From Hymenobacter jeollabukensis (GTDB lineage Bacteria > Bacteroidota > Bacteroidia > Cytophagales > Hymenobacteraceae), in NCBI RefSeq assembly GCF_005771675.1, contig NZ_VAJM01000019.1, forward strand, positions 1-64,000: DNA of 64,000 bases, given 5' to 3'. Of this stretch, positions 39,915-47,246 are shown piece after piece; the stretch's first letter is position 1, and each line of letters begins with the position of its first letter. Position numbers and translations under genes: made by a program. The notes beneath the pieces were generated by a model, which did not search any database, was not told where the DNA came from, and saw nothing but the letters and a program-made list of their open reading frames with translations.

Positions 39915-39992
39915 GTGAGATGGTAAGTGGTGAGTTGTCGTTCTGATGCGGTTTGAACGTCAAACTCACCAGTTCACCACTCACCATCTCAC
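39915..39992. repeat. inverted heptad-repeat hairpin between convergent genes
   Basis: Arms 39915-39933 and 39974-39992 are 19 bases with one mismatch. They are built of units like TGGTGAG and TGGTAAG. The stop codon of the minus-strand gene (39989-39991) lies in the right arm. It is a likely terminator for both genes. Confidence 0.7.
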
Positions 39993-40549
39993 TGATATAC
40001 TCCCCACTGCCGGGGCAGGCCCAGGTCGCGGGCCAAAGGGGCGGCGGCGGTGGCCCAGAGGTTGGTCAGCAGCTCGTTGATGGCGTCGGCCAGCTCCAGG
40101 TGGTAGTCGGTTTCGAGCTTGTCGGCCTGGCGCAGGGCGGTGTCGGCGCGGCGGGCCAGGTGGCTGAGTAGGGGCTGGGTGGTGCCGGTGAGGCGGGCCA
40201 CCGTGGCGGGCTGGTGCTGAAACACGTTGTTGAGCAGGCGCACCGTCAGCTCCACCTCGCCGAACTGGTCGCCGGTGATTTTGGCGTGGTAGCCGATCTG
40301 GCTTTGCAGCTGGCGCAGAATGAGCAGCAGGTCGTTGGGCGTCTGGTGGTAGCCGCGCACCGGGTCGTCGAGCCGCTCGCGCAGGCGGGTGCGGCGCTCC
40401 TGCAGCGCGTCGGGGCCCTCGAGCAGGCGAAACTGCAGCTGCTCGGTCAGCACCTTGTCCTGGCACACGAGGCGGGCCAGGAGCTGGTCCTTCTCCTTCT
40501 GGGGCAGGTTCAGCAGGGCTTTGCGCAGGGCGGGTGGAAGAGAGGCCAT
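39989..40549 (-). CDS. helical protein of unknown function
   Basis: A 186-residue soluble, all-helical protein. It starts MASLPPALRKALLNLPQKEK and shows repeated amphipathic helices. The segment DPVRGYHQTPNDLLLILRQLQSQIGYHAKITGDQFGEVEL stands out, followed by helices with heptad leucines and a C-terminal tail PLARDLGLPRQWGVYQ. The pattern resembles a family of Bacteroidota hypothetical proteins with conserved LVCQDKVLTEQL and ITGD-x-x-G. No function can be assigned. It lies upstream of a heptad-repeat hairpin. Confidence 0.7.
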   Translation of the reverse strand: MASLPPALRKALLNLPQKEKDQLLARLVCQDKVLTEQLQFRLLEGPDALQERRTRLRERLDDPVRGYHQTPNDLLLILRQLQSQIGYHAKITGDQFGEVELTVRLLNNVFQHQPATVARLTGTTQPLLSHLARRADTALRQADKLETDYHLELADAINELLTNLWATAAAPLARDLGLPRQWGVYQ

Positions 40550-42258: not shown

Positions 42259-43500
42259 TTACCCTTTCGCCTTCACCTTGGCCTTCTGCACCGGTACCGG
42301 GGCCTGCCGCGGAGCATTGTAGCTGATGCGGTAAATCACCCCGTTGTCGTCATCCGAGACGAGCAGGGAGCCGTCGGGGGCCTGCACCAGGGCGCAGGGG
42401 CGGCCGAATTCGGCCTTGTCGCCCTCCACCAGCCAGCCGGTCACGAAGTCCTCGAACCGCTCGGGTTGGCCCCGGTCGTTGAAGTGCACCCGCACGATTT
42501 TGTAGCCCGCGGGCTGGGCGCGGTTCCAGGAGCCGTGCATGGTCACGAAGGCGTCGTTTTCGTAGGCGGGCGGGAACAGCTGCACGCGGTTGAACGTCAG
42601 CGCCAGCGGGGCCGAGTGGGCTTTGTAGAGCAGCGCGGGCCGCACGCACTTGGCGTCGAATTGCTGGTACGAGTCGCCGCTTTTGGGCTTGTTGGCCGGG
42701 TAGAGCTGGCCGTCGGCGATGATGCTGGGCCAGCCGTAGTGGGCGTTTTCCTTGATCTGGTTCAGCTCTTCCATCTGCGCTTCGTCGCCCAACCAGTCGA
42801 TGCCGTGGTCCATGCCGAAGAGCTGCCCGGTGCCGGGGTGCCAGTCGAAGCCGATGGTGTTGCGCAGGCCGCGGGCGTACACCGCGCGGCCCGAGCCATC
42901 GGTCTTGATGCGCAGCAGGGTGGCGTTTTCGGGGTTGTCCTCGTCGCAGGCGTTGCAGGTGCTGCCCACCGAAAGGTAGAGCTGCCCGTCGGGTCCGAAG
43001 CGCAGGGTGCGGTTGGCGTGCTGCCCGGCGTCGGGCAGGTCGGTGTAGAGGGTTTTTAGCTCGCCCAGGGTGCCGTCGGCCTTCACGTCGGCCACGTACA
43101 GCTCGCGGATGGCGGCCATGTAGAGCTTGCCATCCTTCAGGGCCAGGCCGTGCAGGTGCGGCTTCTGGGCCACCTGCTGCACCACTTCGGCCTTCCCGTC
43201 GCGGTTGGCGTCGCGCAGCAGGGTCACGGTGCCCTTCACCCGGTTCGACACGTACACGTCGCCGCCCGGGGCCACGGCCAGCATACGCGGCATGTCGAGC
43301 CCGGTGGCGTACTGACTGATGACGAAGCCGGGCGGGGCCTTCAGACTGGCCACCCGCTCGGGCGTGGCGGGCAGCTTCTTGGGCAGGTAGATGTTGCCCG
43401 TCATCCTGAACGGCGTGGCCTCGGGCGGCACATTCTGGGCGGCAGCGGGCAGGGCGGGCAGCAGCGTGGCGGCCAGTAGGAGGGAGAAGTAATGTGGCAT
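42259..43500 (-). CDS. sorbosone dehydrogenase-like PQQ beta-propeller protein
   Basis: A 413-residue periplasmic protein from the ATG at 43500. The signal peptide (FSLLLAATLLPALPAAAQ) is followed by a six-bladed beta-propeller of the soluble glucose/L-sorbosone dehydrogenase (SGL/PQQ) type. Typical segments include GFVISQYATGLDMPRMLAVAPGGDVYVSN, YTDLPDAGQHANRTLRFGPDGQLYLSVGS, and GLRNTIGFDWHPGTGQLFGMDHGIDWLGDE, with a conserved histidine and arginine at the active site. It probably oxidises a sugar or aldose with PQQ. It ends in a Lys/Val/Ala tail. Confidence 0.9.
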   Translation of the reverse strand: MPHYFSLLLAATLLPALPAAAQNVPPEATPFRMTGNIYLPKKLPATPERVASLKAPPGFVISQYATGLDMPRMLAVAPGGDVYVSNRVKGTVTLLRDANRDGKAEVVQQVAQKPHLHGLALKDGKLYMAAIRELYVADVKADGTLGELKTLYTDLPDAGQHANRTLRFGPDGQLYLSVGSTCNACDEDNPENATLLRIKTDGSGRAVYARGLRNTIGFDWHPGTGQLFGMDHGIDWLGDEAQMEELNQIKENAHYGWPSIIADGQLYPANKPKSGDSYQQFDAKCVRPALLYKAHSAPLALTFNRVQLFPPAYENDAFVTMHGSWNRAQPAGYKIVRVHFNDRGQPERFEDFVTGWLVEGDKAEFGRPCALVQAPDGSLLVSDDDNGVIYRISYNAPRQAPVPVQKAKVKAKG

Positions 43501-43561
43501 GAGCAGGTCGAACGGATGAGGTTTGTTCAAACTGCCATTCCGGGCGCGGGGTTGCGCCCGG

Positions 43562-44074
43562 CTACCACCACGGCCGAAATGGCGTTACGAACACGTAGAG
43601 TACCGGCTCGGGCCGGTACAGGTCCAGCGCGTATTTCGATTGGTTGAGCTGCGGCATCAAATCCAGCGCCGCCACCAGGCTGGCGTAGCGCGCCCCGGCC
43701 GCAAAGCGGATGCACACGTCGGCGCGCTCGGCCGGCTGCGTCCGGCCCCGGCGCAGGCGCTCGGCCACCGCCTGCAGCATGGCCGCGTCGTGCCCGGCAT
43801 TGCCGATGAGGGTGTAGGAAAGCCAGCGGCGGCGGTCCAGGTCGGGCGGAACGGTGAAATAGAACCGGGTAACGCTTTCCGCAGGCCTCGCCCGCTGCCG
43901 CGCCTGAACCAGCGACCAGGGAACGGGCATGCTGATTTGCATCACGTACCGCTGCGGGCGGTACACGGCCCGCGCCAGCCGCTGCACGGCCAGCAGCAGC
44001 ACCAGCATCAGCGGCAACAGGCCCAGGGGCAGACGCAAAGCCCGGCGGCGCAGACGAAGGCGGCGAAGCAGCAT
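43562..44074 (-). CDS. membrane-anchored protein of unknown function, downstream paralog of a tandem pair
   Basis: A 170-residue protein with one N-terminal helix (LPLGLLPLMLVLLLAVQRLA) and a soluble domain outside. It shares with the next gene the layout VMQ-I/L-S, a run to the segment IRFAAGARYASLVAALDLMPQLNQSKYALDL, then a divergent C-terminus. Its ATG overlaps the stop of the upstream gene by one base, so the two are translationally coupled. It resembles nothing I can name. It may work with the nearby TonB receptor or the Exb-type energy system, but the TonB receptor is divergent. Confidence 0.65.
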   Translation of the reverse strand: MLLRRLRLRRRALRLPLGLLPLMLVLLLAVQRLARAVYRPQRYVMQISMPVPWSLVQARQRARPAESVTRFYFTVPPDLDRRRWLSYTLIGNAGHDAAMLQAVAERLRRGRTQPAERADVCIRFAAGARYASLVAALDLMPQLNQSKYALDLYRPEPVLYVFVTPFRPWW

Positions 44075-44817
44075 CAGTGGCGGAAGTTAGTGGCGAACAG
44101 CCGCTGCAGCTGCCACGCGGCGGCTGGCGGCAGCAGCAGCAGCAGGAGCGTGGAGTAGCGCCAGGCGGGGCTAAACAGGGGGCGCCAGGTGCTCAGGCGA
44201 AATGCCGCTGCCAACTCCGCCCGTAACTGATGGTGCCACAATGGCGGTGGCGGCGTTGGGGGAGTGTGTGGAATGACATCATCGCAAAGGAAGCGGCCCA
44301 GGTCAACCTCAACCGTGTCGCTGGGTGGATGATACGCCGTGAAAGCGTTGAGGCTAACTGGCAAGCGTCTTAAATCAAGCCAATACCTTTTCTGGTCAGT
44401 CGAAAGCATTAAATCCAGCATTCTGACGAGAGCCTGATAGTGGCTGCCAGCTTCGAACTCGATGCGTAGACCCCGGTCCTGATTGAGCTCCTCTTGGAGT
44501 TGCCGGGCCACGAACGTGGCGGTGCGGACGCTGAGGTCATCCTGCCAGGCATTGCCGGTGAAGTTCACCGTGTGCAACGGGGCTGGTAGCTTGAGTGGAG
44601 CCGTGTACAGCTGGGTTGAAAAGGCACTTAACGGTTTCTGCTTCGTCGCCTCTATTTGTTCAGGTGAAGCTATACTCAGCTGCATCACCCGCTGCCGAAA
44701 CCGCCGCAGCTCCGGCCGCGCCGCCAGCAGCGCGCCGCCCAGCACCGGCAGCCAGGCCAACGCCAGCAGCCCGGCCGGGAAAAATAGCTTGCGCGAATGA
44801 CGACGAGCCACGTACAT
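44074..44817 (-). CDS. membrane-anchored protein of unknown function, upstream paralog
   Basis: A 247-residue protein from the ATG at 44817 (an upstream TTG is possible). One helix (LFFPAGLLALAWLPVLGGALL) is followed by FRQRVMQLSIASPEQIEATKQ and a soluble domain. A central segment LRIEFEAGSHYQALVRMLDLMLSTDQKRYWLDL matches its downstream paralog. A second hydrophobic helix near the end (LLLLLLPPAAAW) suggests both termini are cytoplasmic. GC is locally low (44200-44700). Its start codon abuts an 18-bp palindrome. Confidence 0.65.
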   Translation of the reverse strand: MYVARRHSRKLFFPAGLLALAWLPVLGGALLAARPELRRFRQRVMQLSIASPEQIEATKQKPLSAFSTQLYTAPLKLPAPLHTVNFTGNAWQDDLSVRTATFVARQLQEELNQDRGLRIEFEAGSHYQALVRMLDLMLSTDQKRYWLDLRRLPVSLNAFTAYHPPSDTVEVDLGRFLCDDVIPHTPPTPPPPLWHHQLRAELAAAFRLSTWRPLFSPAWRYSTLLLLLLPPAAAWQLQRLFATNFRH

Positions 44818-44818
44818 G

Positions 44819-44867
44819 CCAGGCAAGGTATACGCGCCGTAAAGGCCGCCGCGTATACCTTGCCTGG
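44819..44867. repeat. 18-bp perfect inverted repeat at the start codon of the unknown gene pair
   Basis: Arms 44819-44836 and 44850-44867 (CCAGGCAAGGTATACGCG and its complement) around 13 bases. The near arm ends two bases before the ATG of the minus-strand gene. In mRNA it would form a stem covering the ribosome-binding region. Confidence 0.8.
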
Positions 44868-45077: not shown

Positions 45078-47246
45078 ATGCCTCACCGCTCCGCGCCGTT
45101 TCTACTGCTCCTGGCCACGCTGCCCGCCGCCCTGCGGGCCCAGGCCCCCGCGCCGCCCGATAACACCAACGGGCCCGTCGTAGTGCAACGGCTGCCCGAG
45201 GCCACCGTGGTCGGCTACGGGCAGCGGCTGCCGCTGCGGCGCACCGCCGCCGCCGTGGGCGTGGTCGATGCCGCTACGTTGGGGCGCTTCAGCGAGGCGT
45301 CGCTGGCGCAGGCCGTCAACACCCTGCCCGGGGTGCGGCTGGAGGAGCGGGCCACGGCCAGTTACCGGCTCAGCGTGCGCGGCAGCACGCTCCGCTCGCC
45401 CTTCGGGGTGCGCAACGTGAAGGTGTATTACCACGACATTCCGCTGACCGAAGCCAGCGGCAGCACCCCGCTCAATCTGCTCGACCCCGCCCAGCTCGGC
45501 CGCATCGAGGTCATTAAAGGGCCGGCCGGCAGCGCGTACGGGGCGGGCACCGGCGGCGTGGCGCTGCTCAGCAACCGGCGCCCCCAGCCCGGCCCGGCCC
45601 ACGCGCAGCTTGGGTTCGGCGTGGGCTCCTTCGGCCTGCGCCGCTACCAGGCCACCGCCGAAACGGCCACCGGCCAGGGCTTCGTGCGGGCCCAGTACCT
45701 GCGGCAGGAGCTGCAGGGCTACCGCCAGCAAAGCGCCCAGCGCCGCGACGTGCTGGCCCTCGACGGTGAGCTGGCCGCCACCGACCGCCACACGCTGGGC
45801 CTGCACCTGCTCTACACCGATCTGCGCTACCAGCTGCCCGGCGGCCTCACCCGGGCGCAGTTCGAGCAAGACCCACGGCAGGCCCGCCCCGGCACGGCCA
45901 CCGCGCCCGGCACCGTGGCCCAGCGCACGTTCTACGCCTCGCGCACCGTCCTGCTCGGCGCTACGCACGAATACCGCTTCAGCCCGCGGCTGACCGGCAA
46001 AACCACCCTCTACGGCTCGGGCAGCGTCATTCGCACGCCCTATTTGGTCGATTTCGAGCGGAACACCCAGGTGGGTGGTGGCGGGCGCACGCGCTTTGAT
46101 TACCGCACCCAGCTGGCCGGGCAGCTGCTGCGCCTCGCGGCCGGGGCCGAGCTGCAAACCAGCTTCGAGAGCAGCCGCAACTACCAAAACCGGGCCGGGC
46201 AGCCCGGCCCGCTGCGCTACGACGACGAAATCGGCACGCTCACCGGCTTCGCGTTCGGGCAGGCCGACTGGGAGCTGCCCTACGGCTTCCTCGTCACGGC
46301 CGGGGCCAGCTACAACCGCCTGCGCTACCGCCTCCGCCGCCTGCAGGACGCCCTGAATACGCCCGCCCAGACCTACAACGTGGCGCGCACCTTCCTCCCC
46401 GAAGTGTCGCCGCGGCTGGCCGTGCTCAAGGAGCTGACGCCGCTGGTGTCGGCCTACGCCAGCGTCAGCACCGGCTTTTCGCCCCCGACGGAAGAGGAAA
46501 TCCGCCCGTCCGACGGCTCGCTGAACCAGGCCCTGCAGGCCGAGCGCGGCACCAGCTACGAGCTGGGCCTGCGCGGCGACGTGCTGCGGCAGCGCCTGAA
46601 GTTCGACGTGGCGGCCTACGACTTCCGCCTGCGCAATACCATCGTCACGCGCTCCAGCGAGCAGGGCACCCAGCTGTTTCGCAACGCCGGCAACACCCGG
46701 CAGCGCGGGGTGGAAGTGGCCCTGAGCGGCTGGCTGTGGCAGCAGGTGCGGGTGGACTCCGAAAGCAAGCTGATCGGGCCGGCCGGTAGCGCCAGTATAG
46801 TGCAGGATGTGAGGCAGGTCGGGGGCTTGCGTGCCTTCGTCAGCTACGCCTACAACCATTACCGCTTCGGCCGCTACGAGTCGGGCGGGGCTGATTTCAG
46901 CGGCAACCAGCTCACCGGCACCACCCCGCACACGCTCACCGCCGGTTTGGATATTACTCAACGGTTGGGCTTCTACCTAAGCCCCACCGTCAGCCACCAG
47001 GCCCGCCTGCCCCTCAACGACGCCAACACCGACTACGCCGCCGGCTACTGGGTGTTCGGCGCCCGGGGCGGCTGGCGCCACACGCTGTTCCGGAAGCTGG
47101 AAGCCGAGCTGTACGCCGGCCTCGACAACGCCACCGACCGCCGCTACTCCCTCGGCAACGACCTGAACGCCTTCGGGGGGCGCTACTTTCAGCCCGCGCC
47201 GGGGCGCAACTACTACGGCGGCGCCACTGTGGGCTGGCGCTGGTAG
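45078..47246 (+). CDS. TonB-dependent outer-membrane receptor
   Basis: A 722-residue protein with a signal peptide (PFLLLLATLPAALRAQ) and then a short region LPEATVVGYGQRLPLRRTAA that serves as a TonB box and N-terminal linker. The plug is EASLAQAVNTLPGVRLEERATASYRLSVRG...VIKGPAGSAYGAGTGGVALLSNRRP. About 22 beta strands follow and it ends in ...GRNYYGGATVGWRW with a terminal aromatic residue. The pattern is of the FecA/iron-siderophore type of single-receptor transporter, not SusC. The ligand is unknown. A 260-bp leader containing the palindrome precedes it. Confidence 0.94.
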   Translation: MPHRSAPFLLLLATLPAALRAQAPAPPDNTNGPVVVQRLPEATVVGYGQRLPLRRTAAAVGVVDAATLGRFSEASLAQAVNTLPGVRLEERATASYRLSVRGSTLRSPFGVRNVKVYYHDIPLTEASGSTPLNLLDPAQLGRIEVIKGPAGSAYGAGTGGVALLSNRRPQPGPAHAQLGFGVGSFGLRRYQATAETATGQGFVRAQYLRQELQGYRQQSAQRRDVLALDGELAATDRHTLGLHLLYTDLRYQLPGGLTRAQFEQDPRQARPGTATAPGTVAQRTFYASRTVLLGATHEYRFSPRLTGKTTLYGSGSVIRTPYLVDFERNTQVGGGGRTRFDYRTQLAGQLLRLAAGAELQTSFESSRNYQNRAGQPGPLRYDDEIGTLTGFAFGQADWELPYGFLVTAGASYNRLRYRLRRLQDALNTPAQTYNVARTFLPEVSPRLAVLKELTPLVSAYASVSTGFSPPTEEEIRPSDGSLNQALQAERGTSYELGLRGDVLRQRLKFDVAAYDFRLRNTIVTRSSEQGTQLFRNAGNTRQRGVEVALSGWLWQQVRVDSESKLIGPAGSASIVQDVRQVGGLRAFVSYAYNHYRFGRYESGGADFSGNQLTGTTPHTLTAGLDITQRLGFYLSPTVSHQARLPLNDANTDYAAGYWVFGARGGWRHTLFRKLEAELYAGLDNATDRRYSLGNDLNAFGGRYFQPAPGRNYYGGATVGWRW

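What the first reader, a model, noticed from the sequence alone, without database searches (positions are those of the whole stretch)
43562..44817. Uncharacterised tandem paralogs with a one-base overlap
Two membrane-anchored proteins share a conserved core (VMQ-I/L-S ... F-A/E-A-G-x-x-Y-x-x-L-V-x-x-x-D-L-M ... K-Y-x-L-D-L) but have no recognisable domain. They are translationally coupled and sit divergent to a TonB-dependent receptor. They could be a two-component periplasmic complex linked to uptake.
Basis: partly seen in the sequence, partly recalled or inferred. Interest (0 to 1): 0.5.

Follow-up and report, generated by a model that had tools for sequence, protein, structure and literature searches.

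The report
ExbD-like protein pair without motor residue
Two neighbouring genes in a Hymenobacter-like bacterium code for membrane-anchored relatives of ExbD, a subunit of the proton-driven motor that powers nutrient uptake, but both lack the residue that makes the motor run, so they may tune that machine rather than drive it.

Summary
The two overlapping genes are real, paralogous and under purifying selection. Evidence: the family profile finds two of the genome's four ExbD proteins (E 1.6e-5 and 2.1e-5); profile-profile comparison gives E 9.5e-10 (score 66) against controls scoring at most 19; ExbD is the only Pfam model matched by more than one member (9 of 54). Yet both lack the membrane aspartate that carries protons in ExbD (Ala and Pro here); 4 of 105 close relatives and 0 of 11 more distant ones have it. 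P0001 also has a probable second, C-terminal membrane helix. This is an Asp-less, ExbD-derived accessory family, not an ExbD motor subunit. The 'two-component complex' idea is weak: sister species carry only one such gene. The receptor is a core gene kept without the pair, and no ortholog of it was found beside 11 distant members. Best guess: an inner-membrane modulator that engages TonB or ExbD through its periplasmic domain. The homology is well supported; the function is inferred.

The parts
44074..44817 (-). P0001: 247-aa ExbD-derived protein with an N-terminal and a probable C-terminal membrane helix
   Evidence: ORF; family profile E 6.5e-70 (it is part of that profile); model m1a2492e97953, mean pLDDT 77.7; dN/dS 0.30
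44719..44775 (-). P0001 N-terminal membrane helix (residues 15-33); residue 19 (44761-44763) is Ala where ExbD has its proton-carrying Asp
44662..44688 (-). P0001 VMQLSIASP: NIBS-like strand of the ExbD linker (residues 44-52; the Pro is displaced)
44341..44577 (-). P0001 periplasmic beta-alpha-beta-alpha-beta-beta domain (residues 81-159), with conserved Tyr127, the counterpart of ExbD Tyr112
   Evidence: block-mean pLDDT 89-98
44086..44160 (-). P0001 probable C-terminal membrane helix (residues 220-244), not found in P0002 or in ExbD
   Evidence: model; hydropathy 1.31, under the 1.6 cut-off
43562..44074 (-). P0002: 170-aa ExbD-derived protein with one N-terminal membrane helix; its start shares one base with the P0001 stop
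   Evidence: model m062a4e5b5b75, mean pLDDT 81.0
43964..44020 (-). P0002 membrane helix (residues 19-37); residue 21 (44012-44014) is Pro where ExbD has Asp
43925..43945 (-). P0002 VMQISMP: NIBS strand; VMQISMPV is shared exactly with one of the genome's own ExbD proteins
43592..43825 (-). P0002 periplasmic domain (residues 84-161), conserved Tyr130
45078..47246 (+). Context: divergent TonB-dependent receptor, core gene of the taxonomic family; nearest NCBIfam model PqqU but far below its cut-off
42259..43530 (-). Context: glucose/sorbosone dehydrogenase family protein, next gene downstream
   Evidence: immediately downstream in 32 of 89 member loci

Best explanation
P0001 and P0002 belong to an accessory family that arose from an ExbD-type subunit of the Ton motor. 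They sit in the inner membrane by an N-terminal helix homologous to the ExbD pore helix, P0001 probably also by a second C-terminal helix. They keep the linker strand (NIBS) and the periplasmic domain with its dimer-interface tyrosine, but lack the membrane aspartate needed for proton flow. Most likely they do not drive transport. Through the retained periplasmic domain they probably pair with ExbD or capture TonB's D-box segment, and so modulate how much force reaches outer-membrane receptors. Shown here: the homology, the absent aspartate, the N-terminal anchor and predicted domain, purifying selection, and the patchy and partly tandem occurrence. Inferred: the loss of motor function, the binding partners, the direction of the effect, and any special link to the receptor next door.
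For: Homology: a whole-genome search with the family profile finds two of the genome's four ExbD proteins, on C12 (E 1.6e-5) and C21 (E 2.1e-5), overlapping the PF02472 matches. hhalign of the family against the long ExbD type of related genomes gives probability 96.5, E 9.5e-10, score 66; 16 other gene clusters scored 10.7 to 19.0, reversed and 30 column-shuffled controls at most 16.6. The anchor+NIBS part and the periplasmic part match separately (E 3.1e-5 with probability 73, and E 2.2e-7 with probability 94). P0002 against the own ExbD by BLASTP: E 9e-6 for the single comparison, 28% over 143 aa. In one search P0002 picked up seven further loci (E 1.2e-4 to 0.0079) that match the long ExbD type. 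ExbD is the only Pfam model hit by more than one member (9 of 54). Absent aspartate: at the ExbD Asp column 30 of 32 ExbD have D (2 have G); of 105 family members 93 A, 4 D, 7 other residues, 1 gap; 11 distant members S (10) or I (1). Retained: the Tyr column is Y in 97 and F in 5 of 105; the NIBS Pro is P in 71 of 105. The roles of NIBS and Tyr112 come from passages of PMC10771500, of Asp25 from passages of PMC12905483, of the D-box from passages of PMC10907165.
Against: Neither window protein reaches the ExbD cut-off (P0002 12.5 bits against 25.4; P0001 no match). The best of 54 members, E 0.014 and 15.9 bits, is one of the four with Asp. The Foldseek listing for P0002 and the VIA listing for P0001 showed IF3-C, SepF, Smr and other folds and no ExbD or TolR among the 50 rows printed. 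The short ExbD type of the same genomes matched barely above the controls (score 20.0, E 0.026). The 11 distant members match ExbD only weakly on their own (probability 11, E 0.0026), although they match the Hymenobacter-group family strongly (E 3.3e-25). The NIBS Pro is displaced in P0001 and absent at its column in 34 of 105. No binding to TonB or ExbD was tested. About half the genomes gave no match.
Confidence: 0.5

Rival explanations
1. ExbD-derived but repurposed outside the Ton system: the periplasmic domain now binds peptidoglycan or another envelope partner, and the membrane helices are only anchors.
For: Absence of the Asp is near-universal. No ortholog of the window's receptor was found beside the 11 distant members, and their neighbours differ between groups. 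The anchor, not the domain, is the best conserved part (mean pairwise identity 0.58 against 0.29). An ExbD periplasmic construct binds peptidoglycan sacculi (PMC12905483 passage).
Against: The NIBS strand and the Tyr112 counterpart, which serve the ExbD open/closed switch, are still recognisable.
Confidence: 0.3
2. One reading: the two paralogs form a dedicated heterocomplex that serves the divergent receptor.
For: One-base overlap and divergent receptor; the same arrangement in G002 (L073); receptor immediately divergent in 46 of 89 member loci.
Against: Four of the eight genomes of the genus carry a single copy (G004, G005, G006, G007). Only 17 of 89 member loci hold two or more copies. The receptor is kept in 17 fetched loci that lack the family.
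Confidence: 0.08
3. Still a working motor axle: the pair inserts in an ExbB-like pentamer and uses another acidic residue, or shares the pore with a normal ExbD.
For: The N-terminal helix is homologous to the ExbD pore helix and is the most conserved region; four of 105 members have Asp at the ExbD position.
Against: No acidic residue lies within the modelled N-terminal membrane helix of either window protein; the ExbB-family matches of the genome lie on contigs C12 and C24, not C11.
Confidence: 0.07
4. Decaying duplicates of exbD without function.
For: Fast divergence; several hits carry in-frame stops (rows).
Against: dN/dS 0.30-0.47 in the window's own lineage, not far from the receptor's 0.28; members of the same layout in three taxonomic families.
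Confidence: 0.05

Closest known systems
ExbD / TolR (Pfam PF02472), above all the long ExbD type found in this genome (L011, L012)
   Same: Collinear N-terminal membrane helix, NIBS-like linker strand, periplasmic domain predicted with two helices on a sheet, conserved Tyr and the LD....[KR]Y segment.
   Different: No membrane Asp in either window protein, score below the Pfam cut-off, probable extra C-terminal membrane helix in P0001, no exbB neighbour, patchy distribution.
Tandem ExbD paralogs in G022 (L173) with Gly in place of the Asp
   Same: Tandem ExbD-type genes that lack the proton-carrying Asp.
   Different: Otherwise ExbD sequences over the Pfam cut-off (56.9 and 41.8 bits); separate from the family here.
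TPH-vWA proteins described in PMC12204202 (passages read)
   Same: Another ExbD-like helix joined to an unusual periplasmic part.
   Different: By that paper they keep the Asp and co-occur with tolQ homologs; the window pair does neither.

Membership tests
ExbD/TolR (PF02472) | Score above the curated Pfam cut-off | tested here: not met
   P0002 12.5 of 25.4 bits, P0001 no match
ExbD/TolR (PF02472) | Sequence homology over membrane helix, linker and periplasmic domain | tested here: met
ExbD/TolR (PF02472) | Proton-carrying Asp in the membrane helix | tested here: not met
   Ala19 in P0001, Pro21 in P0002; 4 of 105 relatives have D
ExbD/TolR (PF02472) | NIBS strand in the linker | tested here: met
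   VMQISMP in P0002 as in an own ExbD; VMQLSIASP in P0001 with displaced Pro, so less clear there
ExbD/TolR (PF02472) | Dimer-interface Tyr (Tyr112 of ExbD) | tested here: met
   Tyr127 and Tyr130; Y in 97 of 105. The equation with Tyr112 rests on the alignment and on the E. coli sequence as recalled
ExbD/TolR (PF02472) | Periplasmic fold like solved ExbD or TolR | tested here: inconclusive
   Predicted two helices and four strands, but no ExbD or TolR in the 50 rows shown by Foldseek and by VIA
ExbD/TolR (PF02472) | Single membrane helix | tested here: inconclusive
   P0002 one; P0001 two in its model, the second with hydropathy under 1.6; by that cut-off 31 of 105 members, 8 of 11 distant members and 0 of 32 ExbD have a C-terminal one
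ExbD/TolR (PF02472) | Gene next to exbB/tolQ | tested here: not met
   PF01618 matches only on contigs C12 and C24, not C11
ExbD/TolR (PF02472) | Assembly with ExbB and binding of TonB | not testable with these tools
   needs multimer prediction or biochemistry
PqqU receptor (NF041535), for the neighbour | Score above the curated cut-off | tested here: not met
   best NCBIfam match, 183 of 1200 bits

The most novel reading that the evidence does not exclude
Bacteria of the order Cytophagales carry a widespread family of 'pseudo-ExbD' proteins: ExbD copies without the proton-carrying residue, many with a second membrane helix, which act as tunable brakes or adaptors of the Ton motor by occupying TonB or ExbD through the conserved periplasmic switch.
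Probability: 0.25. Interest if true: 0.7.

Novelty: new variant of a known kind. Interest (0 to 1): 0.5.

Why it matters
Inhibitory or regulatory copies of the ExbD, TolR or MotB motor subunits are not something I met in the titles and abstracts listed by five literature searches or know from memory. A family in which the essential residue is gone but the partner-binding parts are kept is a natural experiment: it could separate the motor role of ExbD from its role in gripping TonB, and show how bacteria with many receptors share one energy source.

Tried and rejected
Considered and dropped. (a) A new uncharacterised domain: rejected after the ExbD profile results. (b) That the four Asp-bearing members are the ancestral form: a first tree rooted on ExbD put them at the base, but the next node had support 0.0; with 11 distant members added, all without Asp, they nest inside the family on weakly supported nodes, so the question is open. 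(c) A receptor-specific module: weakened by core status of the receptor and by single copies. (d) A lipoprotein: many members end the first helix in LGC, but the window proteins have no Cys there. (e) The inverted repeat 44819-44867 as a conserved operator: degenerate in L073. A genome-wide pattern search for it used the wrong spacer length and is uninformative. Led nowhere: the NCBIfam scan of both proteins (none), the profile against solved-structure sequences (two chance-level hits), the genome-contig scan (one close relative only). The genome's own ExbD finds ExbD/TolR structures by phmmer only weakly (best E 0.0034), so a miss by the diverged family was to be expected. Limits: trees and gene calls are rough; my gene caller did not list P0001, and members were added by profile. 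The tallies include some matches that are ExbD (such as G093, G094, G120, G127) or unexamined, and they miss some members (G021, G071 found later). Most fetched loci were centred on members, so neighbour counts describe those loci only. Two short fragments (L200) of 107 members were left out of the column counts. One chimeric ORF (L090_7999) and one poor one (L100_8012) were left out of the profile, the latter still counted among the 105. Of 11 genomes outside the taxonomic family with a match, four were confirmed as members and one as ExbD; six were not examined.

Full report
What is there. The window belongs to a Hymenobacter-like genome: the one named relative found is Hymenobacter edaphi, 89% identical for P0001. 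Two minus-strand genes lie at 44817-44074 (P0001, 247 aa) and 44074-43562 (P0002, 170 aa) and share one base. They are paralogs. dN/dS against G002 is 0.30 for P0001 and 0.47 for P0002, and against G006 0.38 for P0002; the neighbours give 0.28 (receptor) and 0.09-0.15 (dehydrogenase and symporter). So both are maintained genes that evolve fast.

Identity. Pfam gives P0002 only a sub-threshold ExbD match (E 0.16) and P0001 none. I therefore collected relatives: 100 of 204 genomes of the taxonomic family match P0001 and 96 of 204 match P0002 at E 0.01; some of the weakest P0002 matches are ExbD itself. Of 54 relatives scanned one by one, 9 match ExbD, and no other Pfam model matches more than one. 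A profile of the 54 finds two of the genome's four ExbD proteins at E 1.6e-5 and 2.1e-5, overlapping the PF02472 matches. Profile-profile comparison with 32 long-type ExbD proteins gives E 9.5e-10. Controls: 16 other gene clusters scored 10.7-19.0 against 66, and reversed or shuffled alignments at most 16.6. The anchor plus NIBS strand and the periplasmic part are each recognised alone, and the result survives removal of the window's clades and the Asp-bearing clade (44 members, E 4e-9). The short ExbD type matched far worse (score 20.0, E 0.026).

What was kept and what is missing. On a joint alignment the ExbD membrane aspartate is D in 30 of 32 ExbD proteins and G in two tandem ExbD copies of G022. 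In the family it is A in 93, D in 4, another residue in 7 and a gap in 1 of 105. P0001 has Ala and P0002 Pro. The NIBS strand VMQ[LI][ST]MP of local ExbD proteins is recognisable, and P0002 shares VMQISMPV exactly with one of them. The dimer-interface Tyr column is Y in 97 and F in 5 of 105. Passages of PMC10771500 describe NIBS, Tyr112 and the open/closed switch that TonB selects. Passages of PMC10907165 describe capture of the TonB D-box by an ExbD dimer. Passages of PMC12905483 call Asp25 essential. AlphaFold2 models show one membrane helix in P0002, two long hydrophobic end helices in P0001, and in both a confident domain of two helices and four strands. The second helix of P0001 is only probable: its hydropathy is 1.31; with a cut-off of 1.6, 31 of 105 members, 8 of 11 distant members and 0 of 32 ExbD have a hydrophobic C-terminal segment. 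Searches of solved structures listed common alpha/beta folds and no ExbD among the 50 rows shown, so the fold test is inconclusive.

Distribution. Eleven more distant members were analysed: seven from other genera of the same taxonomic family and four from two other families of the order (Cytophagales by recalled taxonomy). They match the Hymenobacter-group family at E 3.3e-25 and carry Ser (10) or Ile (1) at the Asp position, but match ExbD itself only at E 0.0026. In the order-wide search 25 of 194 genomes gave any match, some of them to ExbD. The N-terminal anchor is the best conserved part of the family: mean pairwise identity 0.58 over sampled pairs, against 0.29 for the domain.

Context. 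Of 106 analysed loci 89 hold members. The receptor is the immediate divergent neighbour in 46 of 89, and lies somewhere in the fetched stretch in 71 of 89; 17 of 89 hold two or more members. A close match to the receptor is present in 201 of 204 genomes. Of 20 receptor loci fetched from genomes with no or doubtful members, 17 lack the family and 3 hold a member. In the window's genus two copies occur in two genomes, one copy in four and none in two. None of the 11 distant member loci, about 2 to 7 kb on either side, holds a tblastn match to the receptor, the dehydrogenase, the symporter or the 186-aa gene at 39989-40549.

Mechanism. The simplest reading is an ExbD copy without the motor residue and with the partner-binding parts retained, held in the inner membrane. 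It may form mixed dimers with ExbD or take TonB's D-box, and so tune force delivery. This is inference; repurposing outside the Ton system is the main rival. I give the ExbD homology about 0.93, Ton-related modulation about 0.5.

Novelty. Four literature searches pairing ExbD with D-box, paralogs, lack of aspartate or Hymenobacter (all hits listed) and one for ExbD-like proteins in Cytophagales (10 of 53 listed) showed no paper whose title or abstract start describes such a family; most listed papers were not read. I class it as a new variant of a known kind.

Noticed in passing
window 45078-47246: The divergent receptor has a close match in 201 of 204 genomes of the family; its best NCBIfam match is the PQQ receptor PqqU (183 of 1200 bits), and a glucose/sorbosone dehydrogenase family gene occurs in 44 of the 106 analysed loci. 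It could be a distant PQQ receptor.
   Followed up: partly
window 44819-44867: A 21-nt inverted repeat (95% complementary, 7-nt loop) sits directly upstream of the P0001 start and may form a hairpin in its leader; it is degenerate in G002.
   Followed up: partly
L173 (G022:C2:321400-323000): Two tandem ExbD-type genes with Gly instead of the membrane Asp (MVGLGFLL), otherwise well-formed ExbD: a separate case of a missing motor residue.
   Followed up: partly
L104, L105, L106, L108: Four family members carry Asp at the ExbD position of the membrane helix; whether retained or regained is unresolved.
   Followed up: partly
L090:7999-8646: An ORF that starts with the family's anchor motif but continues into an unrelated secreted-protein-like sequence; it may be a fusion or recombination product.
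   Followed up: no
L078 and L222, near the starts of the members: Perfect inverted repeats of 35 and 40 nt per arm near the 5' ends of the family genes.
   Followed up: no
window 39989-40549: A 186-aa protein without Pfam or NCBIfam match is the immediate downstream neighbour in 44 of 89 member loci and is also present in some loci without the family.
   Followed up: no
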